64,000 nucleotides of DNA. It comes from Hydrogenivirga caldilitoris. Its GTDB lineage: Bacteria > Aquificota > Aquificia > Aquificales > Aquificaceae. This document shows, piece by piece, positions 46,458-58,081 of this stretch. Every line of letters begins with the position of its first letter. Positions within the stretch are counted from its first letter, which is position 1. A program made the translations under genes and the position numbers. Below the pieces are notes generated by a model. It did not search any database, was not told the DNA's origin, and saw only the letters and a list, made by a program, of their open reading frames with translations. The stretch lies in assembly GCF_003664005.1 (NCBI RefSeq), contig NZ_RCCJ01000001.1, positions 806,001 to 870,000 of the forward strand, given 5' to 3'.

Positions 46458-47178
46458 TCTTTACCTCCACAAAAAGGTCTCTGTTTCCCTTTACCCTTTC
46501 AAGGAAAACCTGTGCGCTCCCTATAGTAAATTTAACACTCAACTTTACAGGTATGTTCGTTTCCTTATCTATCCATACAAACCACTCTCCCTTGGGTTTC
46601 AATATACCTTTAGTATCAACCTCAGGTACCAGAAGAACCTTCCAGGTAGGATAGGTTTTATCAAAGACCTCAACAACCTCCTCGCCCACCGTTTTGTAAT
46701 AGACACTCTGAACCTTTTCATCGTAGAACACGTAAATCCTATCGCCTCTGTAGTTAGGTGTATCCAGGTATACCAGGAGCGAGGTTGAAAAGGGGTCAAA
46801 AAGGTACACAGAGCTCTCATAGAACCCCTCTTTTACATCTACCCCTTCTTCTTTATATCTGACGATTCTATACGCTATACCTCTTTTCATGAACGAATAG
46901 GTGTGGTCCCTTATAAAACTCCCTTCCCTTTGATATAGGGAAAAGCTCTTAGGTTTAAGGGAGAGTAGCTCGGCTTCCCCCCAGTTGTTGACTCTCTTGA
47001 CCAGCTTACCCACGACGATGGTTTTAGCCCAGGAACGTATCCTTAGTTCTTCACCCTTTAAGGAATACTCAACACAGCTTTGGGCAACGGGAAGGAACCA
47101 GAAGTAGATTCTGTAGCAAGTCTCCAGCTCCTTTGCCAGCAAAAGGAAAGGAAACAGAAGTACAAAGAGAAATCTCAT
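46435..47178 (-). CDS. DUF3108 periplasmic protein
   Basis: A 247-residue exported protein: signal MRFLFVLLFPFLLLA, then a beta-rich domain with ETCYRIYFWFLPVAQSCVEYSL and WFVWIDKETNIPVKLSVKF near the end, the DUF3108 pattern (related to lipoprotein-binding folds). Function unknown. The ATG overlaps the pilB stop (ATGA). Confidence 0.82.
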   Translation of the reverse strand: MRFLFVLLFPFLLLAKELETCYRIYFWFLPVAQSCVEYSLKGEELRIRSWAKTIVVGKLVKRVNNWGEAELLSLKPKSFSLYQREGSFIRDHTYSFMKRGIAYRIVRYKEEGVDVKEGFYESSVYLFDPFSTSLLVYLDTPNYRGDRIYVFYDEKVQSVYYKTVGEEVVEVFDKTYPTWKVLLVPEVDTKGILKPKGEWFVWIDKETNIPVKLSVKFTIGSAQVFLERVKGNRDLFVEVKNGQAELF

Positions 47179-48332
47179 TGCATGAGCACTCTGTTTACCT
47201 CTTCAATGGAGGTTATTCCCTTCCTTACCTTCAGTATACCTGCCTGATAAAGGGTTCTCATACCCTTTTCCTTTGCAAGCTCCCTTATGTCATCTGCTGT
47301 ACCACCCTTTATTATGAGCTTCCTGAGCTCTTCATCTATCTCCATAATCTCATGAACCGCCGTTCTTCCCTTGTAGCCGGTATTATTACAGGTGGCACAA
47401 CCCTTCTCACTTGCTTTGTATATGGTTATATCCTCATCGGGAGACTTAATTACACCCAACCTCACAAGGGCTTCCTTTGGCACATCATGGGGAACCTTGC
47501 AATCCGGGCATAGCTTCCTTATAAGCCTCTGGGCGACAACCAGAACAAGAGAAGAACCTACAAGGAAAGGCTCTATACCCATATCTGTCAACCTTGTAAT
47601 AGTTGTGGGGGCATCGTTTGTGTGAAGGGTGGAGAACACGAGGTGTCCGGTCAGGGAGGCTCTTATTGCGATATCTCCAGTTTCCAGGTCCCTTATCTCA
47701 CCCACCAGTATTATGTCCGGGTCCTGTCTAAGGAAGGCTCTCAAAACGCTTGAGAAGGTTAGACCGATCCTTTCGTTCACCTGTACCTGGTTTATACCAG
47801 GTATAGAGACTTCAACGGGGTCTTCAGCTGTCATTATGTTCACATCGGGGTGGTTTCTCTCCATCAGGGCTGAGTAGAGGGTCGTCGTCTTACCGGAACC
47901 GGTCGGACCTGTAACGAGTATCATTCCCCAGGGCTTCCATATAGCGTTCCTGAACTTCTCCAGATCATCGGGTTCAAAGCCTAGGTCCTCAAGCTTAACA
48001 TTAAGGTACTTTTCAGCCTCCTGAATCCTCATGACAACCTTTTCACCGTAAACTGTCGGGACAGTTGAAACCCTGAGGTCTATCTTCTTCCTCTCAATTT
48101 TTATCCTTATCCTTCCATCCTGGGGTTTCCTCTTCTCCGCTATATCAAGACTTGACATTATCTTGTACCTGGCTACCAGGCTGTCCCTTATATTTACAGG
48201 CAGCTGGTGGTATATCCTTAAAACGCCGTCAACCCTGTACCTAACTATAACCTTCTTCTCCTGAGGCTCTATGTGTATGTCTGAAGCTCCCATCTTCACA
48301 GCTTCAAATATGAGCCCGTTTGCAAGCTTCAC
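47175..48332 (-). CDS. pilB: Type IV pilus/type II secretion ATPase PilB (C-terminal part of an interrupted gene)
   Basis: Holds the whole ATPase core of a PilB/GspE protein: N2-type domain (ASDIHIEPQ), Walker A GPTGSGKTTTL, Asp box, Walker B DIILVGEIRD, His box STLHTNDAPTT, and the zinc site CPDC...GCATCNNTGYKGR. It is in the same frame as the upstream N-terminal part (48399-48872) and separated from it only by an amber codon at 48399-48401. If translated separately, the first usable start is GTG at 48332, which lacks a good ribosome site. The motor extends type IV pili or drives competence. Confidence 0.8.
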   Translation of the reverse strand: MKLANGLIFEAVKMGASDIHIEPQEKKVIVRYRVDGVLRIYHQLPVNIRDSLVARYKIMSSLDIAEKRKPQDGRIRIKIERKKIDLRVSTVPTVYGEKVVMRIQEAEKYLNVKLEDLGFEPDDLEKFRNAIWKPWGMILVTGPTGSGKTTTLYSALMERNHPDVNIMTAEDPVEVSIPGINQVQVNERIGLTFSSVLRAFLRQDPDIILVGEIRDLETGDIAIRASLTGHLVFSTLHTNDAPTTITRLTDMGIEPFLVGSSLVLVVAQRLIRKLCPDCKVPHDVPKEALVRLGVIKSPDEDITIYKASEKGCATCNNTGYKGRTAVHEIMEIDEELRKLIIKGGTADDIRELAKEKGMRTLYQAGILKVRKGITSIEEVNRVLMQ

Positions 48333-48398
48333 TATCGGTGCTTCTTCCGTAGCATGGATAAGCTGCTCTATCGGTGTGTCAACCTCTTCCTTCTCCAG

Positions 48399-48872
48399 CT
48401 ACACTTCGGTTTCCTCTATCTGGCTCAGTACGTCACCGAGCTGAGGAAACTGTTTATCCAGAATCTTCTCAATGGTTGACAGGGGTGCAACGTAGGGTAT
48501 TATGCTTTGAGCCTTGGTATAAAATCTCAACTCGTTTATGAGGTTCTGGTTGAGTGGGTTTAGCATTATCACATGGAGCTTGCCTTTATCGTACATTACG
48601 GGCACAACCTTAAACTTCCTCATGAACTCCTGAGGTATTGAGTTAAGAATATGGGAAGGAACCTGAAGCTCCTGAACCTCTTCCTTCCACACTTTCTGCG
48701 GGAGTATAGTCTGGAAGAACTTAGTTATGTCCTTCTCAGAGAGTAACCCCAGTCTTAGAAGGGTCTGGAATATGTCCTCATCTTCCTTGCGCTCTGAAAG
48801 TATCTTCTTTATATCACCTTCCTTTACGTATCCGGCTCTGAGAAGCAAGTTCAAAATCTTCTCATGTTCCAT
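48399..48872 (-). CDS. pilB: PilB N-terminal (T2SSE-N) part, ended by an in-frame amber codon
   Basis: A 157-residue N-terminal domain: MEHEKILNLLLRAGYVKEGDIKKIL, then PSHILNSIPQEFMRKFKVVPVMYDKGKLHVIMLNPLNQ, the MshEN/T2SSE-N pattern. Ends EETEV-TAG; reading on gives LEKEEVDTPIEQL and runs without a break into the ATPase core. A full-length product would be 565 residues, normal for PilB. ATG at 48872 has AGAGGA five bases upstream; it overlaps panB by 11 bases. CAG to TAG would explain the stop. Confidence 0.8.
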   Translation of the reverse strand: MEHEKILNLLLRAGYVKEGDIKKILSERKEDEDIFQTLLRLGLLSEKDITKFFQTILPQKVWKEEVQELQVPSHILNSIPQEFMRKFKVVPVMYDKGKLHVIMLNPLNQNLINELRFYTKAQSIIPYVAPLSTIEKILDKQFPQLGDVLSQIEETEV

Positions 48873-49665
48873 AACTTTCCTCTTCGGAAGGGAACTCCCC
48901 CTTCTCAACTTCTATTTTAAATTTTGTGAGGGCTTCTCTGAAAATTTTTGCACCTTCCGCATACCTCCTGACAAATTTAGGTTTCGCTTCCTCATAGAGC
49001 CCCACCAGGTCGTGAAATACAAGCACCTGTCCATCACAAAATTTTCCCGCTCCTATCCCTATAGTTATTACTTCGGAACTTTCTGTCAACTCCTTAGCGA
49101 GTCTCCAAGGGACACTTTCAAGAACTATCATATCAACACCCGCTTCTACAAGGGCTTTGAAGTCTATCCTCAATCTCTCTGCTTCCTTCTCCTCTTTACC
49201 CACAACCCTTGGAACTCCGAAGAGGTTTATTGACTGGGGAGTGAAACCCAAATGCCCCACAACAGGGATACCCACACCGGTAAGCCTGTAAACGAGCTCT
49301 GCAACACTCTCACCACCCTCTATCTTTACCGCCTGAGCTCCCGTCTCTTTTATTACCCTACCACAATTCTTTATCCCCTCCTCAATAGAAACCTGGTAGC
49401 TCATAAAAGGCATATCAACAACCAAAAAAAGTTCAGGGGCACCTCTCCTCACAGCCCTGGCATGGTAGATGACCTCCTCAAGGGTAACAGGTAGCGTTGA
49501 GTCCAGACCTTGGAAAACCATTCCCAGGGAATCTCCTACCAGAACAGAATCAATGCCAGCCTCTTGACAAAGCTTGGCGGATAGGAAATCGTAAGTAGAT
49601 ATCATCGTTATCTTTTCTCCCCTCCACTTCTTTTTCCTTAAGCTCCAAAGGGTTACTCTTCCCAT
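48862..49665 (-). CDS. panB: 3-methyl-2-oxobutanoate hydroxymethyltransferase
   Basis: A 267-residue enzyme making ketopantoate for pantothenate and CoA. Seen: ITMISTYDFLSAKL (about 19-32), VGDSLGMVFQG (about 42-52, metal-binding Asp), VVDMPFMSYQ (about 81), AVKIEGG (about 111), GHLGFTPQSINLFG (about 135-148) and GIGAGKFCDGQVLVFHDLVGL. ATG at 49665 with TAAAAT 7 bases upstream. Confidence 0.96.
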   Translation of the reverse strand: MGRVTLWSLRKKKWRGEKITMISTYDFLSAKLCQEAGIDSVLVGDSLGMVFQGLDSTLPVTLEEVIYHARAVRRGAPELFLVVDMPFMSYQVSIEEGIKNCGRVIKETGAQAVKIEGGESVAELVYRLTGVGIPVVGHLGFTPQSINLFGVPRVVGKEEKEAERLRIDFKALVEAGVDMIVLESVPWRLAKELTESSEVITIGIGAGKFCDGQVLVFHDLVGLYEEAKPKFVRRYAEGAKIFREALTKFKIEVEKGEFPSEEESYGT

Positions 49666-52340: not shown

Positions 52341-53738
52341 ATGGACGTTAGGCTTATCATTTCTGCTAGCAGAAACCTTGTCCTCACTTTCCTTCTGAAG
52401 GACAAAGACATATCCGAGATAAAGGTTGAGAAGAGGGGAGAAAAGAGGCTGTCGGGGAGCATATTTAAAGGGAGGGTGAAACGCTTTGCCAGAAGCCTTG
52501 ACGGAGTTTTCGTTGATATAGGGATTGATAAAGAAGCTTACCTACCCCTCAAGTCTTATGAAGGGTTTTCCGAAGAGGAGGAAAACTGCCCTGCACCTGA
52601 CGAGGGTTCAGAGATCCTCGTTCAGATGAAGAGAGAACCTATGGAGAACAAGGGAGCTAAGCTTACATGCAGGATAAGTCTTCCTGGGAAGTTCCTCGTG
52701 TATTTGCCCACAACCAACAGGATATTCATCTCCTCAAAAATAGAGGATGATAGTAAGAGAAACTACTTCAAAGAGCTCTTTGAAAAACATCTGGACAAGG
52801 ATGGCGTTATAGTGAGAACTTCCGCTGAATTCGCAACGGAAGAAAAGCTCTTACAAGAATTGCAAAGGCTAAGAAAAGTCTGGGAGGATATAAAGAGGAA
52901 AGCAGCGAGCATAAAACAGGGTATGGTTTATGAAGAGTTACCCGCCTATATGCAGCTTGTGAGGGATTACTGGAGTGATATATCGGAGATAGTAGTTGAC
53001 GACAGGGAACTGTGGTCTGAGCTATTGGTCCAACTTGAGGAACACTCCCCAGAGCTCATAAGTAAGGTCAGGTACGTAAAGAACATCAGCGTATTTTTCA
53101 AGAAATACGGGCTTGATAAGGCGCTTACAAAACTGTTTGCCCGTTACGTATGGCTCAAAAGCGGAGGGTACATAATAATTGAAGAAACGGAAGCCATGAC
53201 AGTTATAGACGTGAACAGCGGTGCCGGTTGCGGGGAAACCTTGGAAGAAAATGCTCTAAAGACGAACATAGAGGCAGCCCATGAGATAGTTAGACAGATA
53301 AAGTTAAGGGGAATAGGAGGGATAGTGATAATTGACTTTATAGACATGAAAGATAAGAGAAATAAGAACCTGCTTGTAGATAAGGTTAAGGAACTCTTCG
53401 CCGATGAAGGCTCCAACGTTCACGTTTACGGAATAACCCAACTGGGGCTTTTAGAGCTCACACGGAAAAAAGAGACACCGAGCGTAACCAGACTGCTATC
53501 CATAGACTGCCCCTTCTGTAAGGGTAAAGGGTACATAAAGAGCCCAGAAGTGGTCCTATACGAAATTGAAAAGGAGATCAACTACTTTAAGGGAAGGTAC
53601 TTAGAGATAAAGGTAAACCCAGCTCTGAAAGATAAGGTTGAGAGCCTCCTTGAAAAGAGCAATATGAAACAGTGGGTATCTGTGAAAGAGGAGTGTGATG
53701 CTCCTCTTGATTACTACGAAATGTTTCTGACAGGATGA
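52341..53738 (+). CDS. rng: Ribonuclease G/E family
   Basis: A 465-residue endoribonuclease. S1 domain GSIFKGRVKRFARSLDGVFVDIGIDKEAYLPL (about 33-64), catalytic DNase I-like region with MTVIDVNSGAGCGETLEENALKTNIEAAHEI (about 285-315) and VIIDFIDMK (about 330, metal Asp), zinc-link CPFCKGKG (about 391-398). The length matches RNase G, without the C-terminal scaffold of RNase E. Processes rRNA and mRNA. Its stop overlaps the bamD start. Confidence 0.94.
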   Translation: MDVRLIISASRNLVLTFLLKDKDISEIKVEKRGEKRLSGSIFKGRVKRFARSLDGVFVDIGIDKEAYLPLKSYEGFSEEEENCPAPDEGSEILVQMKREPMENKGAKLTCRISLPGKFLVYLPTTNRIFISSKIEDDSKRNYFKELFEKHLDKDGVIVRTSAEFATEEKLLQELQRLRKVWEDIKRKAASIKQGMVYEELPAYMQLVRDYWSDISEIVVDDRELWSELLVQLEEHSPELISKVRYVKNISVFFKKYGLDKALTKLFARYVWLKSGGYIIIEETEAMTVIDVNSGAGCGETLEENALKTNIEAAHEIVRQIKLRGIGGIVIIDFIDMKDKRNKNLLVDKVKELFADEGSNVHVYGITQLGLLELTRKKETPSVTRLLSIDCPFCKGKGYIKSPEVVLYEIEKEINYFKGRYLEIKVNPALKDKVESLLEKSNMKQWVSVKEECDAPLDYYEMFLTG

Positions 53739-54661
53739 TGGGTATGAAAAAAGGTTTAAGCTTCCTTCTCCTTGTGTTTGTTTTTATAGCGGGTTGCGCA
53801 AAGATGACCGAGGAGAAGAGAGCCCGAAATGCTCAGGAATACTACAGGGAGGCGGTTAACGCCTATGCTAATAAAGACTATGGAGACGCCGCATGGAGTT
53901 TCAATGAGGCTCTTAAGTATATGGACTATCTGACGCCTGAACAGATAGAGAATGCAAAATTCCTGCTCGGAAAGAGCTATTACTACGACGGTAATTACGT
54001 AAATGCAGTTGTTGCCCTTGAGGATTACATATTCTATTACCCTAAACTGAGCAGGACGGAAGAGGCGTACTACTTACTGATAGACAGCTACATAAAGGTT
54101 TCCCCTGACCCGTACAGAGATCAGGAGTATACCTGGAAGGCTATAGACAAGGCGAAAGAGTTCCTGAGCAAGTTCCCTAAAAGCTCCTTTGCTCAAAAAG
54201 TCCAGGGACTTATAGACACAGCCTACAGAAAAATTGCCCAGTACGAGCTCAACATAGCAGAGTTTTACGAAAATTATGGCTACACCTATTCAGCAGCTTT
54301 AAGGTACAGGGAAGTTCTTATCAACTTTCCAGGACAGGTAAACGAGCCAGAGGTTGCCTACAGGTACATAATGTGTCTGCTGACAACGGACAGGCAGGTA
54401 AACATTGAGAAGGAGAAGATGGAAAGTCTGATAAGGGAGGCAAAGGATAAGCTTGAGGAGGCGAGAAGTGAAGAAGAAAAGAAGGCGGCTCAGAAGAGGC
54501 TCTCATTTTTAGAGAGCGAAGTCAAACGCTGGGAGGAGATAGGAAAAAAAGCTCTAGAAGAAGCCAAGGAAGCTCTTGCCAAATACAGAGAGGTTTACGG
54601 TGAAACCCTATACTATAGGAAGCTGAAGGAACTGGCAAAAGAGAAAGGATGGAAAAGTTAA
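53735..54661 (+). CDS. bamD: Outer-membrane assembly lipoprotein BamD
   Basis: A 308-residue lipoprotein: signal MKKGLSFLLLVFVFIAGC, lipobox Cys near 21, then TPR-like repeats starting AQEYYREAVNAYANKDYGDAAWSFNEALKYM and VVALEDYIFYYPKLSRTEEAYYLLIDSYI, as in BamD, the essential partner of BamA. The C-terminal 80 residues are a long charged coiled coil (about 225-290), longer than in enterobacterial BamD. An ATG at 53744 fits the signal peptide best; ATG at 53735 couples to rng. Confidence 0.85.
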   Translation: MMGMKKGLSFLLLVFVFIAGCAKMTEEKRARNAQEYYREAVNAYANKDYGDAAWSFNEALKYMDYLTPEQIENAKFLLGKSYYYDGNYVNAVVALEDYIFYYPKLSRTEEAYYLLIDSYIKVSPDPYRDQEYTWKAIDKAKEFLSKFPKSSFAQKVQGLIDTAYRKIAQYELNIAEFYENYGYTYSAALRYREVLINFPGQVNEPEVAYRYIMCLLTTDRQVNIEKEKMESLIREAKDKLEEARSEEEKKAAQKRLSFLESEVKRWEEIGKKALEEAKEALAKYREVYGETLYYRKLKELAKEKGWKS

Positions 54662-54978
54662 AACTTATTAAAAAACTACTGGAGGACAAGAAGGCCGAGG
54701 ATATAGTTGTGCTTGACGTTTCAAACCTAACAAATATAGCTGACTACTTTCTGATAGCCTCAGCAAACTCAACCGTTCATGCAAGAGCACTTGCAGAGTA
54801 TCTGGTTGAAGAGCTTAAGAAGGCTGGCTATACCATTGATCATATTGAAGGAATGGAGTTTGGGAACTGGATACTTATAGACCTGCTTGATGTTATAGTG
54901 CACATATTTACTCCTGAATGGCGGGAGCACTACGGTATAGAATGGATATGGGCAGAGGCGAGGAGATTAGAGGTATGA
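54649..54978 (+). CDS. rsfS: Ribosomal silencing factor RsfS
   Basis: A 109-residue protein that binds L14 and blocks subunit joining in starvation. Seen: KAEDIVVLDVSNLTNIADYFLIASANSTVHARALAEYL (15-52) and DVIVHIFTPEWREHYGIEWIWAEA. Overlaps bamD by 13 bases and the next gene by 4. Confidence 0.95.
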   Translation: MEKLKLIKKLLEDKKAEDIVVLDVSNLTNIADYFLIASANSTVHARALAEYLVEELKKAGYTIDHIEGMEFGNWILIDLLDVIVHIFTPEWREHYGIEWIWAEARRLEV

Positions 54979-56072
54979 TGCTTGTAAAAGTAGTGCTCTT
55001 GATAGTCCTCCTTATACTCGCCCTTATATTTGCCTACTTTAACCTTCAGAGTGTAAAGGTATCCTTTTTTCGCTTTTCTTACGAAGTTCCTCTATTTCTA
55101 ACTGTATTTGCAAGTTTCATAATGGGTTTTCTGATAGCCTACATTGTGTCTGAGATCAAAGGTCTAAAGTGGAAGAGATACAGTGAGAAGCTTAGTAAAG
55201 CTCTTGAAAGCCTCTGGACAGGCTATCCTGAAAAAGCTCGTGGGGAGCTTGCAAAGCTCATTGACAGGGAAGAGGTAACCCCGCTTTACGCTAAGGCTAT
55301 GAAGGAGCTAGAAAGGGAAGCCTCGGTTTATCTGCAAAGATACTCCCTTGGAATAGTTGAGACTACTATAGCGGAAGACGTGTTCAGAAGAGATATAGAT
55401 AGAGCTCAGGACTTACTTGAAAAGGCTCTTGGGAAGAACTGGAAGAACTTAAAGGCACTGAGAATGCTCAGAAGTGTGTACTACATGAGGGGAGAACAGG
55501 AAAAGGCCATTGACCTACAAAGAAAGCTCATTCAGGAGAGTGAAAAGCCCCTCAAGGAGCTGGAAAAGAAGGTACTTGCCTCAATGCTCGCCCAAAGCAA
55601 GGGTGTTGACGCTCTGAAAGAGATAGAGGCACTTCCCCTAACCCCTTCTTCGCTTGCGATTCTGTGTTCCCATCCGGAAGGTAAGGAAAGGAGAAAGGCT
55701 GCTGCTCTTATGTTTCAGGAAGGCATGCAGAACGAAGCCCTATTAGTGATAATAAGCAAGAATCTGCTTACGCCAGAAGTCATTGAAAAGGTGGAGGAGA
55801 ACAGGGATAAAGTTGATGTATCGGTACTTGCCTTACTGTATCTTAGCGTTGGCATGTATGAGAAGTTTAACGAGCTAAAGGATTACCTCCCCGCTCCGAT
55901 AAAAAACTTAACAAGTAAAGGGTACGGAGAGGACAGAGAATGTTACAGAGAGCTCCTATCCCTTGTAAGGCTTTTAGAATGCGAGGAGTGCGGGAAAGAG
56001 TATTCCCATTATTCTCCTCTGTGTGTAAACTGTTTGAACTGGAATAAATTAAAAACAAAAGGAGGGAGTTAG
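54975..56072 (+). CDS. lapB: LapA-LapB fusion: LPS-assembly membrane protein with TPRs and zinc ribbon
   Basis: A 365-residue protein. The N-terminal LapA (DUF1049) unit has two membrane helices with LIFAYFNLQSVKVSFFRFSYEVPLFLTVFASFIMGFLIAYIV (about 14-55); a TPR-like helical body follows (about 65-320), and the C-terminus is a rubredoxin-like zinc site CEECGKEYSHYSPLCVNC (about 339-356), the LapB signature. In E. coli LapA and LapB are separate neighbouring genes; LapB controls LpxC turnover and lipid A supply. A frame starting at 54918 exists, but ATG at 54975 overlaps the rsfS stop. Confidence 0.85.
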   Translation: MMLVKVVLLIVLLILALIFAYFNLQSVKVSFFRFSYEVPLFLTVFASFIMGFLIAYIVSEIKGLKWKRYSEKLSKALESLWTGYPEKARGELAKLIDREEVTPLYAKAMKELEREASVYLQRYSLGIVETTIAEDVFRRDIDRAQDLLEKALGKNWKNLKALRMLRSVYYMRGEQEKAIDLQRKLIQESEKPLKELEKKVLASMLAQSKGVDALKEIEALPLTPSSLAILCSHPEGKERRKAAALMFQEGMQNEALLVIISKNLLTPEVIEKVEENRDKVDVSVLALLYLSVGMYEKFNELKDYLPAPIKNLTSKGYGEDRECYRELLSLVRLLECEECGKEYSHYSPLCVNCLNWNKLKTKGGS

Positions 56073-56074
56073 GC

Positions 56075-56647
56075 ATGCTTATTGACTCTTCTAAAGGGAT
56101 TGTAAGGTTTAAGGTCGTTTATCACGGAATAGCTATGTCTGGGAAAACCACAAATATAGAGCAATTAGCTCAGCAAAGCGGTCTTGATGTATTGAGCTTT
56201 GATACAAAGGAGGAGAGAACCCTCGTTTTTGACTTCATAACTAAGAAGATAAAGGTAGACGGTTTCACATTGACCTTCTCCATATACACTATACCTGGCC
56301 AGGATATATACAGAGATATAAGGAAGATGGTTATGAGAGGAGTTGATGCGGTCGTGTTTGTGGTTGATTCCTCAGAGAGAAGACTTTCAGAGAACAAAGA
56401 GTTCGTTAGGACTCTGGAGGGTGACTTAAAACTTTACGGTAAAGATATAGAAAGCACACCTATAGTTGTCCAGTACAACAAAAGGGACTTACCTGACGCT
56501 CTTCCCCTTGATGTACTCCAAAGGGAAGTCTCCATACCGGGGAAGAAAACCACTGAAGCGGTTGCCCTCCAAGGCAAAGGCGTTCAGGAAACCTTTGACC
56601 TTATAGTTGAAGAACTCATGGAGAAGTTCCGGAAGATGGTAGGATAA
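56075..56647 (+). CDS. MglA-like small GTPase
   Basis: A 190-residue bacterial Ras-like GTPase. P-loop VVYHGIAMSGKTTN (about 14-27), G2/G3 region FSIYTIPGQDIYRD (Pro-Gly-Gln, about 68-81, as in MglA), MVMRGVDAVVFVVDSS, and NKRDLP base-recognition motif (about 130-135). MglA proteins set cell polarity and position type IV pili or motility machinery. The usual MglB roadblock activator is not adjacent; the next gene is an unknown 474-residue protein. AAAGGAGGGAG ribosome site. Confidence 0.88.
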   Translation: MLIDSSKGIVRFKVVYHGIAMSGKTTNIEQLAQQSGLDVLSFDTKEERTLVFDFITKKIKVDGFTLTFSIYTIPGQDIYRDIRKMVMRGVDAVVFVVDSSERRLSENKEFVRTLEGDLKLYGKDIESTPIVVQYNKRDLPDALPLDVLQREVSIPGKKTTEAVALQGKGVQETFDLIVEELMEKFRKMVG

Positions 56648-56656
56648 ACTAAAAGT

Positions 56657-58081
56657 ATGTTCTATGGCTATATCGGTGATACCCGGGGGCTGAGTGACGT
56701 AATAACAGGGTTGCTCCAGGGAAGGTCAGGAACTTTAGAGCTCTTCGTCAACAGATACTTCCTGTCCCTCAAAGTTGAAGAGGGGCTCATCACAGGGTTT
56801 AAATGTGACATAGGTTCCTTTAATAAGAAAAAGGTTAACTACTATAACCTTTTGGTTTATTGTCTTGCTGAGATGCTTGCAAACCCAGAGGGTTTCTTTG
56901 CCTTTTATGAAGAGTCTAGATCAGCCACTACTCCTCTGGAAAACCCTATAGGCAGTGACGAACTCATGATACAGGCAACCATAGTGAGGAGAGAGCTTGA
57001 TGAGATAGTTGACAAGATAATATCTCCCTATGCCATATTCAAGGCTACAACCACGGACAAGGAACTCTCCTTCTTTGAGGGTAAAAATGTTATAGATGCC
57101 GTCGCCCTTACCAACGACTCCATAGTATCCATCGTAAGAAAGATGAAAGACTCGTTGGTGGAAGGCAAACTTGACATATACGAGTTTCGTGAAAGCGAGG
57201 TCACAGAGGAGCATGATGTTGATTACATGATGGAAAGTGTCCCTCTTAAAAGGGTCAACGTGGTTGCCATACTTGAAAGCTTGAAGACGGGTAGCTTTTC
57301 AGGTATTGCCAAGATTTCATCACCAACATACACCATAAACCTCTTCTACGAGAACGGTGAAATGTTCGCCGTATACCCGGTTGACTTTGACATATTTGAG
57401 TTCTTCTTATCCCCCGATAAGAATGCAGAGTTAAGCCTTGTAGCTCTTGACAGCAATATAGTCAAGTTTATAGCCATGAGATTTCTTGCAAAACCTGAGA
57501 TAGACACGGTAAGCAGTCACTTCATGGAGATAAGTAAGCTCTTTTTGGGCTTGAGTAAACACAGGAAGGACGCCTTACTCCTGATTTCCGAAAAGAAAGG
57601 AGACAGGTTCATAGTGTTTCGGGAGGGCAAGCTGCTCATATCCCTGATTGAAACTGAAGGGAAGTTCAAACCCTCTTCTTCCCTAAGATTTGAAGAGCCT
57701 TATTTTGTAAGCCTTTTCTTTTACAAGAACGTTGCCAACATAGCACCGATAGTTTATCTCTTCATGATAAACGAGGTAATAAGCGTATTCATAAAACACG
57801 CTCCTACAAAGATGAACACTATGGTTCTTAGAGAGGCTGTTAGATACCCTTTCCTTGTATTCTCGGAAGGGAAATTTCATCTCACTAAGAATCCCGGTGA
57901 GGAAGAGGAGCAACGGCTCCTAAATCTGCTTAGCTTTATGCTTGAGCTTGGAGCTCAGGAATTTGGTGAAAAGAAGCAAGAGGAGGAGCTTGAGTTCCAG
58001 CTAAGACCTTTTAAGGACATATTCAAAGTCCTTGATGTAGAAAAATACCTTAAGGTGAGGCATTACGGAAGTAAGGACTGA
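56657..58081 (+). CDS. Unknown MglA-associated protein, DUF4388/PATAN-like N-terminus
   Basis: A 474-residue soluble protein. Residues 12-60 (DVITGLLQGRSGTLELFVNRYFLSLKVEEGLITGFKC) resemble the DUF4388/PATAN domain; a second similar unit occurs near 205-245 (NVVAILESLKTGSFSGIAKISSPTYTINLFYENGEMFAVY) and perhaps a third from about 305 (KDALLLISEKKGDRFIVFREGKLL). Internal repeats of this kind are known in polarity and gene-regulation proteins that work with small GTPases. Not otherwise recognised. No Shine-Dalgarno; ten bases after mglA. Confidence 0.7.
   Translation: MFYGYIGDTRGLSDVITGLLQGRSGTLELFVNRYFLSLKVEEGLITGFKCDIGSFNKKKVNYYNLLVYCLAEMLANPEGFFAFYEESRSATTPLENPIGSDELMIQATIVRRELDEIVDKIISPYAIFKATTTDKELSFFEGKNVIDAVALTNDSIVSIVRKMKDSLVEGKLDIYEFRESEVTEEHDVDYMMESVPLKRVNVVAILESLKTGSFSGIAKISSPTYTINLFYENGEMFAVYPVDFDIFEFFLSPDKNAELSLVALDSNIVKFIAMRFLAKPEIDTVSSHFMEISKLFLGLSKHRKDALLLISEKKGDRFIVFREGKLLISLIETEGKFKPSSSLRFEEPYFVSLFFYKNVANIAPIVYLFMINEVISVFIKHAPTKMNTMVLREAVRYPFLVFSEGKFHLTKNPGEEEEQRLLNLLSFMLELGAQEFGEKKQEEELEFQLRPFKDIFKVLDVEKYLKVRHYGSKD

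What the first reader, a model, noticed from the sequence alone, without database searches (positions are those of the whole stretch)
56075..58081. MglA-like GTPase with an unknown repeat-containing partner inside an envelope operon
The GTPase carries MglA motifs (Pro-Gly-Gln switch, NKRD) but has no MglB neighbour. Instead a 474-residue protein follows, with two or three DUF4388/PATAN-like units. Both lie in one operon with bamD and a LapAB fusion, so this pair may link cell polarity or pilus placement to outer-membrane and LPS assembly. I know of no described system of this composition.
Basis: partly seen in the sequence, partly recalled or inferred. Interest (0 to 1): 0.62.

Follow-up and report, generated by a model that had tools for sequence, protein, structure and literature searches.

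The report
MglA-type GTPase paired with triple-PATAN protein
In heat-loving Aquificaceae bacteria, a Ras-like molecular switch of the kind that sets cell polarity is always encoded next to one dedicated partner protein built from three copies of a domain known in cyanobacteria to contact the pilus motor, so the two most likely control where or when surface pili are made, not how the outer membrane is built.

Summary
Window 56075-56647(+) encodes a Group-1-type MglA GTPase; its best solved relative is Thermus MglA (E 2e-41). Window 56657-58081(+) encodes a 474-residue DUF4388/PATAN protein with three PATAN-like units plus a winged-helix-like segment. The pair follows rng-bamD-rsfS-lapAB. Across Aquificaceae the two genes adjoin on the same strand in 51 of 51 genomes where both are seen (gap -1 to 29 bp); within the phylum the partner family occurs only there. 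In one genus and one further genome the pair is missing as a unit while bamD-rsfS-lapAB remain, and in one genome it sits away from lapAB. It is therefore very likely a functional pair, but not part of outer-membrane or LPS assembly. The genome's two other MglA-family GTPases also adjoin PATAN-type proteins, and those loci do have roadblock (MglB-type) genes. MglA-PATAN neighbourhoods were already reported (Wuichet & Sogaard-Andersen 2014), and PATAN domains bind the pilus motor PilB in Synechocystis. Best reading: a polarity or pilus-control switch, with the PATAN protein as MglA's adaptor/effector and a GAP acting in trans or absent. The GTPase-PATAN contact and the pilus output are inferred. 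New variant of a known kind.

The parts
56075..56647 (+). MglA-type small GTPase (MglA1), 190 aa
   Evidence: Arf/Ras Pfam matches; Thermus MglA 2.3e-41
56126..56152 (+). G1 P-loop GIAMSGKTT (residues 18-26)
   Evidence: Sequence; G18, G23, K24, T26 invariant in alignment A2
56216..56221 (+). Arg finger R48 and G2 Thr49 (EERTL), equivalent to M. xanthus R53/T54
   Evidence: PMC4316618 and PMC6876712 for the role
56288..56302 (+). G3 motif TIPGQ (residues 72-76), MglA form with Thr in place of Asp
56477..56488 (+). G4 motif NKRD (residues 135-138)
56657..58081 (+). Tri-PATAN (DUF4388) partner protein, 474 aa
   Evidence: Pfam DUF4388 5.9e-8; 18/18 orthologues match
56657..57010 (+). PATAN unit 1 (residues 1-118)
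   Evidence: AF2 model of residues 1-178: pLDDT 87.6, pTM 0.85; hhalign to PATAN E 5e-5
57029..57190 (+). Winged-helix-like segment after unit 1 (residues 125-178)
   Evidence: Predicted strand-helix-helix-strand; assignment by inference
57239..57511 (+). PATAN unit 2 (residues about 195-285)
   Evidence: hhalign to PATAN E 5.5e-6 and to unit 3 E 4.8e-6
57512..57976 (+). PATAN unit 3 (residues about 286-440)
   Evidence: Pfam best stretch 290-420; hhalign E 1.3e-4; low-confidence model
53735..54661 (+). bamD (YfiO), operon neighbour
   Evidence: TIGR03302 2.5e-35 over cut-off
54649..54978 (+). rsfS (ribosome silencing factor), operon neighbour
   Evidence: TIGR00090 5e-34
54975..56072 (+). lapAB: LapA domain + TPR + probable zinc ribbon; exact start uncertain
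   Evidence: PF06305 8.9e-8; LapB model 1.6e-5
52341..53738 (+). rng/cafA (RNase G-like), first gene of the conserved run (name recalled from sequence, not scanned)
   Evidence: Conserved position in 17 of 20 loci
47175..48908 (-). pilB-type extension ATPase next to panB, about 7 kb from mglA; interrupted by one in-frame TAG at 48399-48401

Best explanation
mglA1 and the tri-PATAN gene encode a two-part switch. MglA1 cycles between GDP and GTP using its own Arg finger. In the GTP state it binds the PATAN protein, which acts as adaptor/effector and passes the signal to the type IV pilus extension motor PilB, setting where or when pili are extended. Switching off uses the MglB encoded elsewhere (or the small roadblock protein) in trans, or is slow and intrinsic. 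Shown here: family membership of both proteins, strict adjacency, joint loss, recurrence of PATAN partners beside the other MglA paralogues, and pilus ATPase genes in the genome. Inferred: physical binding, direction of signalling, and the pilus output.
For: Adjacent on one strand in 51/51 genomes with both genes, gap -1 to 29 bp. Joint absence from an otherwise syntenic operon. MglA2 in the same genome is also followed by a related PATAN-type protein: the window-partner profile hits 12 members of that family at 4e-7 to 9e-4, none of them used to build it, and hhalign gives probability 94.6, E 6.7e-8. The third GTPase locus holds Robl-DUF4388-GTPase. All family genomes searched encode PilT-type ATPases. 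In genus g11 pilB-pilT-pilC lie one gene away from the pair, and the orthologous panB-pilB is about 7 kb away in the window. Literature: MglA-GTP promotes pilus formation through the effector SgmX, which matters for PilB localisation, in M. xanthus (PMC7519303); the PATAN domain directly contacts PilB in Synechocystis (PMC10519157, PMC7690835).
Against: The genus lacking the pair keeps PilT, so pili do not require it. No binding data or complex model was obtained. The C-terminal two thirds of the partner is poorly modelled. M. xanthus MglA's known pilus effector, SgmX, is a TPR protein, not PATAN. The proximity to pilB covers few independent lineages.
Confidence: 0.5

Rival explanations
1. The tri-PATAN protein replaces MglB: it is the nucleotide-state regulator (GAP- or GEF-like) of MglA1, giving an MglB-free MglA switch.
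For: No MglB at the locus. Genomes G037 and G051 (99% complete) keep MglA1 plus the PATAN protein with no other MglA match, and show only the small roadblock protein of the type that belongs to another GTPase locus.
Against: At the MglA2 locus MglB and a PATAN-type partner coexist, so PATAN does not stand in for MglB there. A confident model of unit 1 matches no solved fold, roadblock included. The Pfam roadblock model can miss divergent MglB: the one in G050 was found only by phmmer.
Confidence: 0.2
2. The pair couples polarity to envelope assembly: the membrane-anchored TPR protein LapAB (or BamD) is MglA1's effector, placing LPS or outer-membrane assembly at a pole.
For: lapAB directly precedes mglA in 19 of 20 loci. 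The known MglA pilus effector SgmX is a TPR protein (PMC7519303).
Against: The pair is missing from intact bamD-rsfS-lapAB operons in genus g4 and in G041. In L055 (G051) the pair lies between glmU-like and phosphoglycerate-mutase genes. The operon also carries translation/RNA genes (rsfS, rng).
Confidence: 0.1
3. The pair feeds a two-component or transcriptional response: the PATAN protein with its winged-helix-like segment is a signalling hub for the OmpR-type regulator and histidine kinase that follow it in several genera.
For: patan is followed directly by OmpR-type regulator and kinase genes in L046 and L059, and by same-sized genes in L050 and L054.
Against: These genes are absent downstream in the window and several other genera, and in G041 a regulator and kinase stay in place although the pair is gone.
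Confidence: 0.12

Closest known systems
MglA/MglB polarity module (Myxococcus, Thermus), MglA Group 1
   Same: GTPase motifs, Arg finger, TxPGQ G3, NKRD, closest solved structures
   Different: No adjacent MglB; about four residues fewer between G1 and G2 than Thermus MglA (alignment); own monophyletic clade (FastTree support 0.999); Arg finger is Lys in part of one genus
MglA-PATAN gene neighbourhoods (Wuichet & Sogaard-Andersen 2014, PMC4316618; Makarova 2006 for MglB-PATAN)
   Same: PATAN gene beside a Group 1/5 MglA; similar loci seen here in Zixibacteria, Ignavibacterium, Sumerlaeota and Fibrobacteria
   Different: There described as occasional and in a set where most MglA is coupled to MglB; here obligate, MglB-less, and with a three-unit partner
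PATAN-CheY regulators of cyanobacteria (PixG, PixE, PilG, LsiR)
   Same: PATAN domain; those bind or act on PilB1 (PMC7690835, PMC10519157)
   Different: No receiver domain here; three PATAN units; paired with a GTPase instead of phosphotransfer input

Membership tests
MglA family (Group 1) | P-loop GxxxxGK[ST] and [NT]KxD | tested here: met
   GIAMSGKT and NKRD; invariant positions in A2
MglA family (Group 1) | Arg finger next to the G2 threonine | tested here: met
   R48-T49 in the window; R in most orthologues, K in several of genus g6
MglA family (Group 1) | G3 TVPGQ in place of DxxGQ | tested here: met
   TIPGQ; T72, P74, G75, Q76 invariant
MglA family (Group 1) | Branches with Group 1 in a tree | tested here: inconclusive
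   Own clade (0.999) beside 80 mostly MglB-coupled MglAs relative to a Group-5-like outgroup (0.964); the sample was picked by similarity and Wuichet's reference set was not used
MglA/MglB module | MglB encoded next to MglA | tested here: not met
   No roadblock gene at the locus; roadblock genes at 434 and 472 kb only
MglA/MglB module | MglB stimulates GTP hydrolysis | not testable with these tools
   Needs purified proteins
PATAN / DUF4388 (PF14332) | Match over the curated Pfam cut-off | tested here: met
   33.2 vs 25 bits; 18/18 orthologues match at E <= 0.01
PATAN / DUF4388 (PF14332) | PATAN fold with helical insertion | tested here: inconclusive
   Unit 1 predicted beta-alpha-beta3-(alpha)-beta2-alpha, pLDDT 87.6; no PATAN structure found in the PDB to compare with
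PATAN-CheY response regulators | C-terminal receiver domain | tested here: not met
   Only DUF4388 found in the Pfam scan
PATAN pilus regulators | Binds PilB | not testable with these tools
   Needs two-hybrid or pull-down

The most novel reading that the evidence does not exclude
An MglB-free Ras-like switch in which a triple-PATAN protein is both the nucleotide-state regulator and the effector of its own MglA, a non-roadblock regulator of the MglA family maintained across the Aquificaceae.
Probability: 0.15. Interest if true: 0.68.

Novelty: new variant of a known kind. Interest (0 to 1): 0.42.

Why it matters
PATAN domains and MglA GTPases are each tied to type IV pilus control in separate model systems (cyanobacteria and Myxococcus), and I found no shared mechanism established. 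An obligate MglA-PATAN pair, plus PATAN-type partners beside each MglA-family GTPase in one small thermophile genome, suggests PATAN is a general MglA partner and gives a compact, probably thermostable protein pair in which GTP-dependent binding can be tested directly.

Tried and rejected
Full-length AF2 model (3-row alignment) reached only pLDDT 60, pTM 0.43, and its Foldseek matches to sliding clamps (best E 0.05, prob below 0.1) are noise. The confident N-terminal model matched no solved fold either. Viral contigs hold no relative. The partner has no relative in the PDB by sequence. Recent duplication of MglA2 into MglA1 was considered and not favoured: the tree separates them. Pilus presence as the reason for keeping the pair was tested and not supported, since PilT-type ATPases are in 64/64 family genomes, with or without the pair. 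Absence of the pair in G048 was set aside, because its contig ends just inside lapAB. A read-through translation joining the two proteins was made but not folded, since the second structure job was better spent on the N-terminal unit.

Full report
Observation. The two genes are present as described. The GTPase is an MglA by motif and by similarity. The 474-residue protein passes the curated DUF4388 (PATAN) cut-off, and its orthologues match the same family. An alignment of PATAN proteins taken mostly from MglA loci of other phyla matches three separate units of the protein. A model of residues 1-178, made with such PATAN proteins in the alignment, is confident (pLDDT 87.6, pTM 0.85) and shows a PATAN unit followed by a small strand-helix-helix-strand segment that resembles the winged-helix-like region following PATAN in other proteins (inference).

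Conservation. The partner family was found in 52 genomes, all in one family of the phylum and in nine of its eleven genera; 136 genomes of the phylum were searched with a profile. Window-type mglA was found in 52 genomes. Of the 51 with both, all 51 have them adjacent, same strand, same order, with gaps of -1 to 29 bp. The partner falls to about 27-34% identity while the order is kept, so this is not simply recent shared DNA. Upstream, rng-bamD-rsfS-lapAB is kept in 17 of 20 loci inspected; lapAB directly precedes mglA in 19 of 20.

Natural deletions. In genus g4 and in genome G041 the operon is assembled through the site where the pair belongs. In G041 and G029 lapAB runs directly into a response-regulator gene, and no MglA or PATAN gene is in the fetched stretch of these or of G032 and G033 (the regulator was read by eye from its sequence). 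Genus g4 shows at most one weak MglA match, no roadblock gene, no DUF4388 over the cut-off, and still PilT-type ATPases. So the pair is lost as a unit, in g4 together with the other MglA, roadblock and PATAN genes, while outer-membrane and LPS genes stay. In G051 the pair lies away from lapAB. This argues against a role in envelope assembly and for a role in the same process as the other MglA/MglB/PATAN loci. Genus g4 counts as one evolutionary event and G041 as another, so the number of independent losses is small; G041 is 90% complete.

The other GTPase loci of the genome. At 471-473 kb: Cache/HAMP sensor, MglB, MglA2, then a 377-aa protein with no Pfam match. This 377-aa family directly follows MglA2 in 14 of 18 Aquificaceae MglA2 loci inspected and lies upstream in three more. 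It is related to the window partner: profile hits of 4e-7 to 9e-4, hhalign probability 94.6, E 6.7e-8 over 248 columns. At 434 kb: a 118-aa roadblock protein, a 230-aa DUF4388 protein and a GTPase with GTPGQ (Group-5-like). Further MglA genes in genera g3 and g8 also lie next to roughly 420-aa DUF4388-like proteins, below the Pfam cut-off (compare coordinates). PATAN is thus a regular companion of MglA-family GTPases in these bacteria. In a sample of 78 MglA loci from other phyla, PATAN genes appear near MglA in ten, mostly with one or two roadblock genes.

Mechanism. In Myxococcus, MglA-GTP stimulates pilus formation through an effector that matters for PilB localisation (PMC7519303), and MglB works by moving MglA's own Arg finger into place (PMC6876712). 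In Synechocystis the PATAN domain directly contacts the extension motor PilB (PMC10519157; PMC7690835). Joining the two gives MglA1-GTP, tri-PATAN adaptor, PilB. Genome context supports this weakly: pilB-pilT-pilC lie one gene from the pair in genus g11 and the orthologous panB-pilB about 7 kb away in the window. The genome has pilus ATPases. Binding, direction and output are inferred. The main rival, that the PATAN protein is MglA1's regulator in place of MglB, is kept open by near-complete genomes with MglA1 and no evident MglB of its own, but is weakened by loci where MglB and a PATAN-type partner coexist.

Novelty. MglA-PATAN neighbourhoods are in the literature (PMC4316618), and two M. 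xanthus PATAN proteins were listed, without further study, among candidates in a search for pilus regulators that found SopA (PMC11580455). What is new is the obligate, MglB-less, three-unit form, its cassette-like loss, and the recurrence of PATAN-type partners beside each MglA-family GTPase of one genome. I rate it a new variant of a known kind, of moderate interest.

Noticed in passing
window 47175-48908 (-), stop at 48399-48401: The pilB-type gene next to panB is split by a single in-frame TAG between its N-terminal and ATPase parts; relatives in L039 (84% identical) and L042 (73%) align along nearly the whole length. Real interruption or sequence error not decided.
   Followed up: partly
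L003 and L143-L160 (own genome 471-473 kb and orthologues): Sensor (Cache/HAMP)-MglB-MglA2-PATAN-type locus, often with a second sensor or second PATAN-type gene; the 377-aa family has no Pfam assignment.
   Followed up: yes
L033 168-1779 (own genome 434 kb): Roadblock-DUF4388-GTPase locus with GTPGQ motif, next to a 241-aa probable coiled-coil membrane protein; the roadblock and DUF4388 genes are kept together across the family.
   Followed up: partly
L083, L084, L104, L116, L123, L106 (alignment A5): The helical insertion of PATAN proteins near MglA in other phyla matches the N-terminal domain of PilB/PilF/MshE in the PDB (best 2.3e-15), a sequence-level tie between PATAN and pilus motors that I have not seen stated.
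   Followed up: no
L050, L051, L052, L059 MglA1: The Arg finger is replaced by Lys (EEKTL) in part of one genus and in a metagenomic relative, which by M. xanthus data could slow GTP hydrolysis.
   Followed up: no
L046, L050, L054, L059 downstream of patan: An OmpR-type response regulator and histidine kinase follow the pair in several genera; in G041 such genes follow lapAB directly although the pair is gone.
   Followed up: partly
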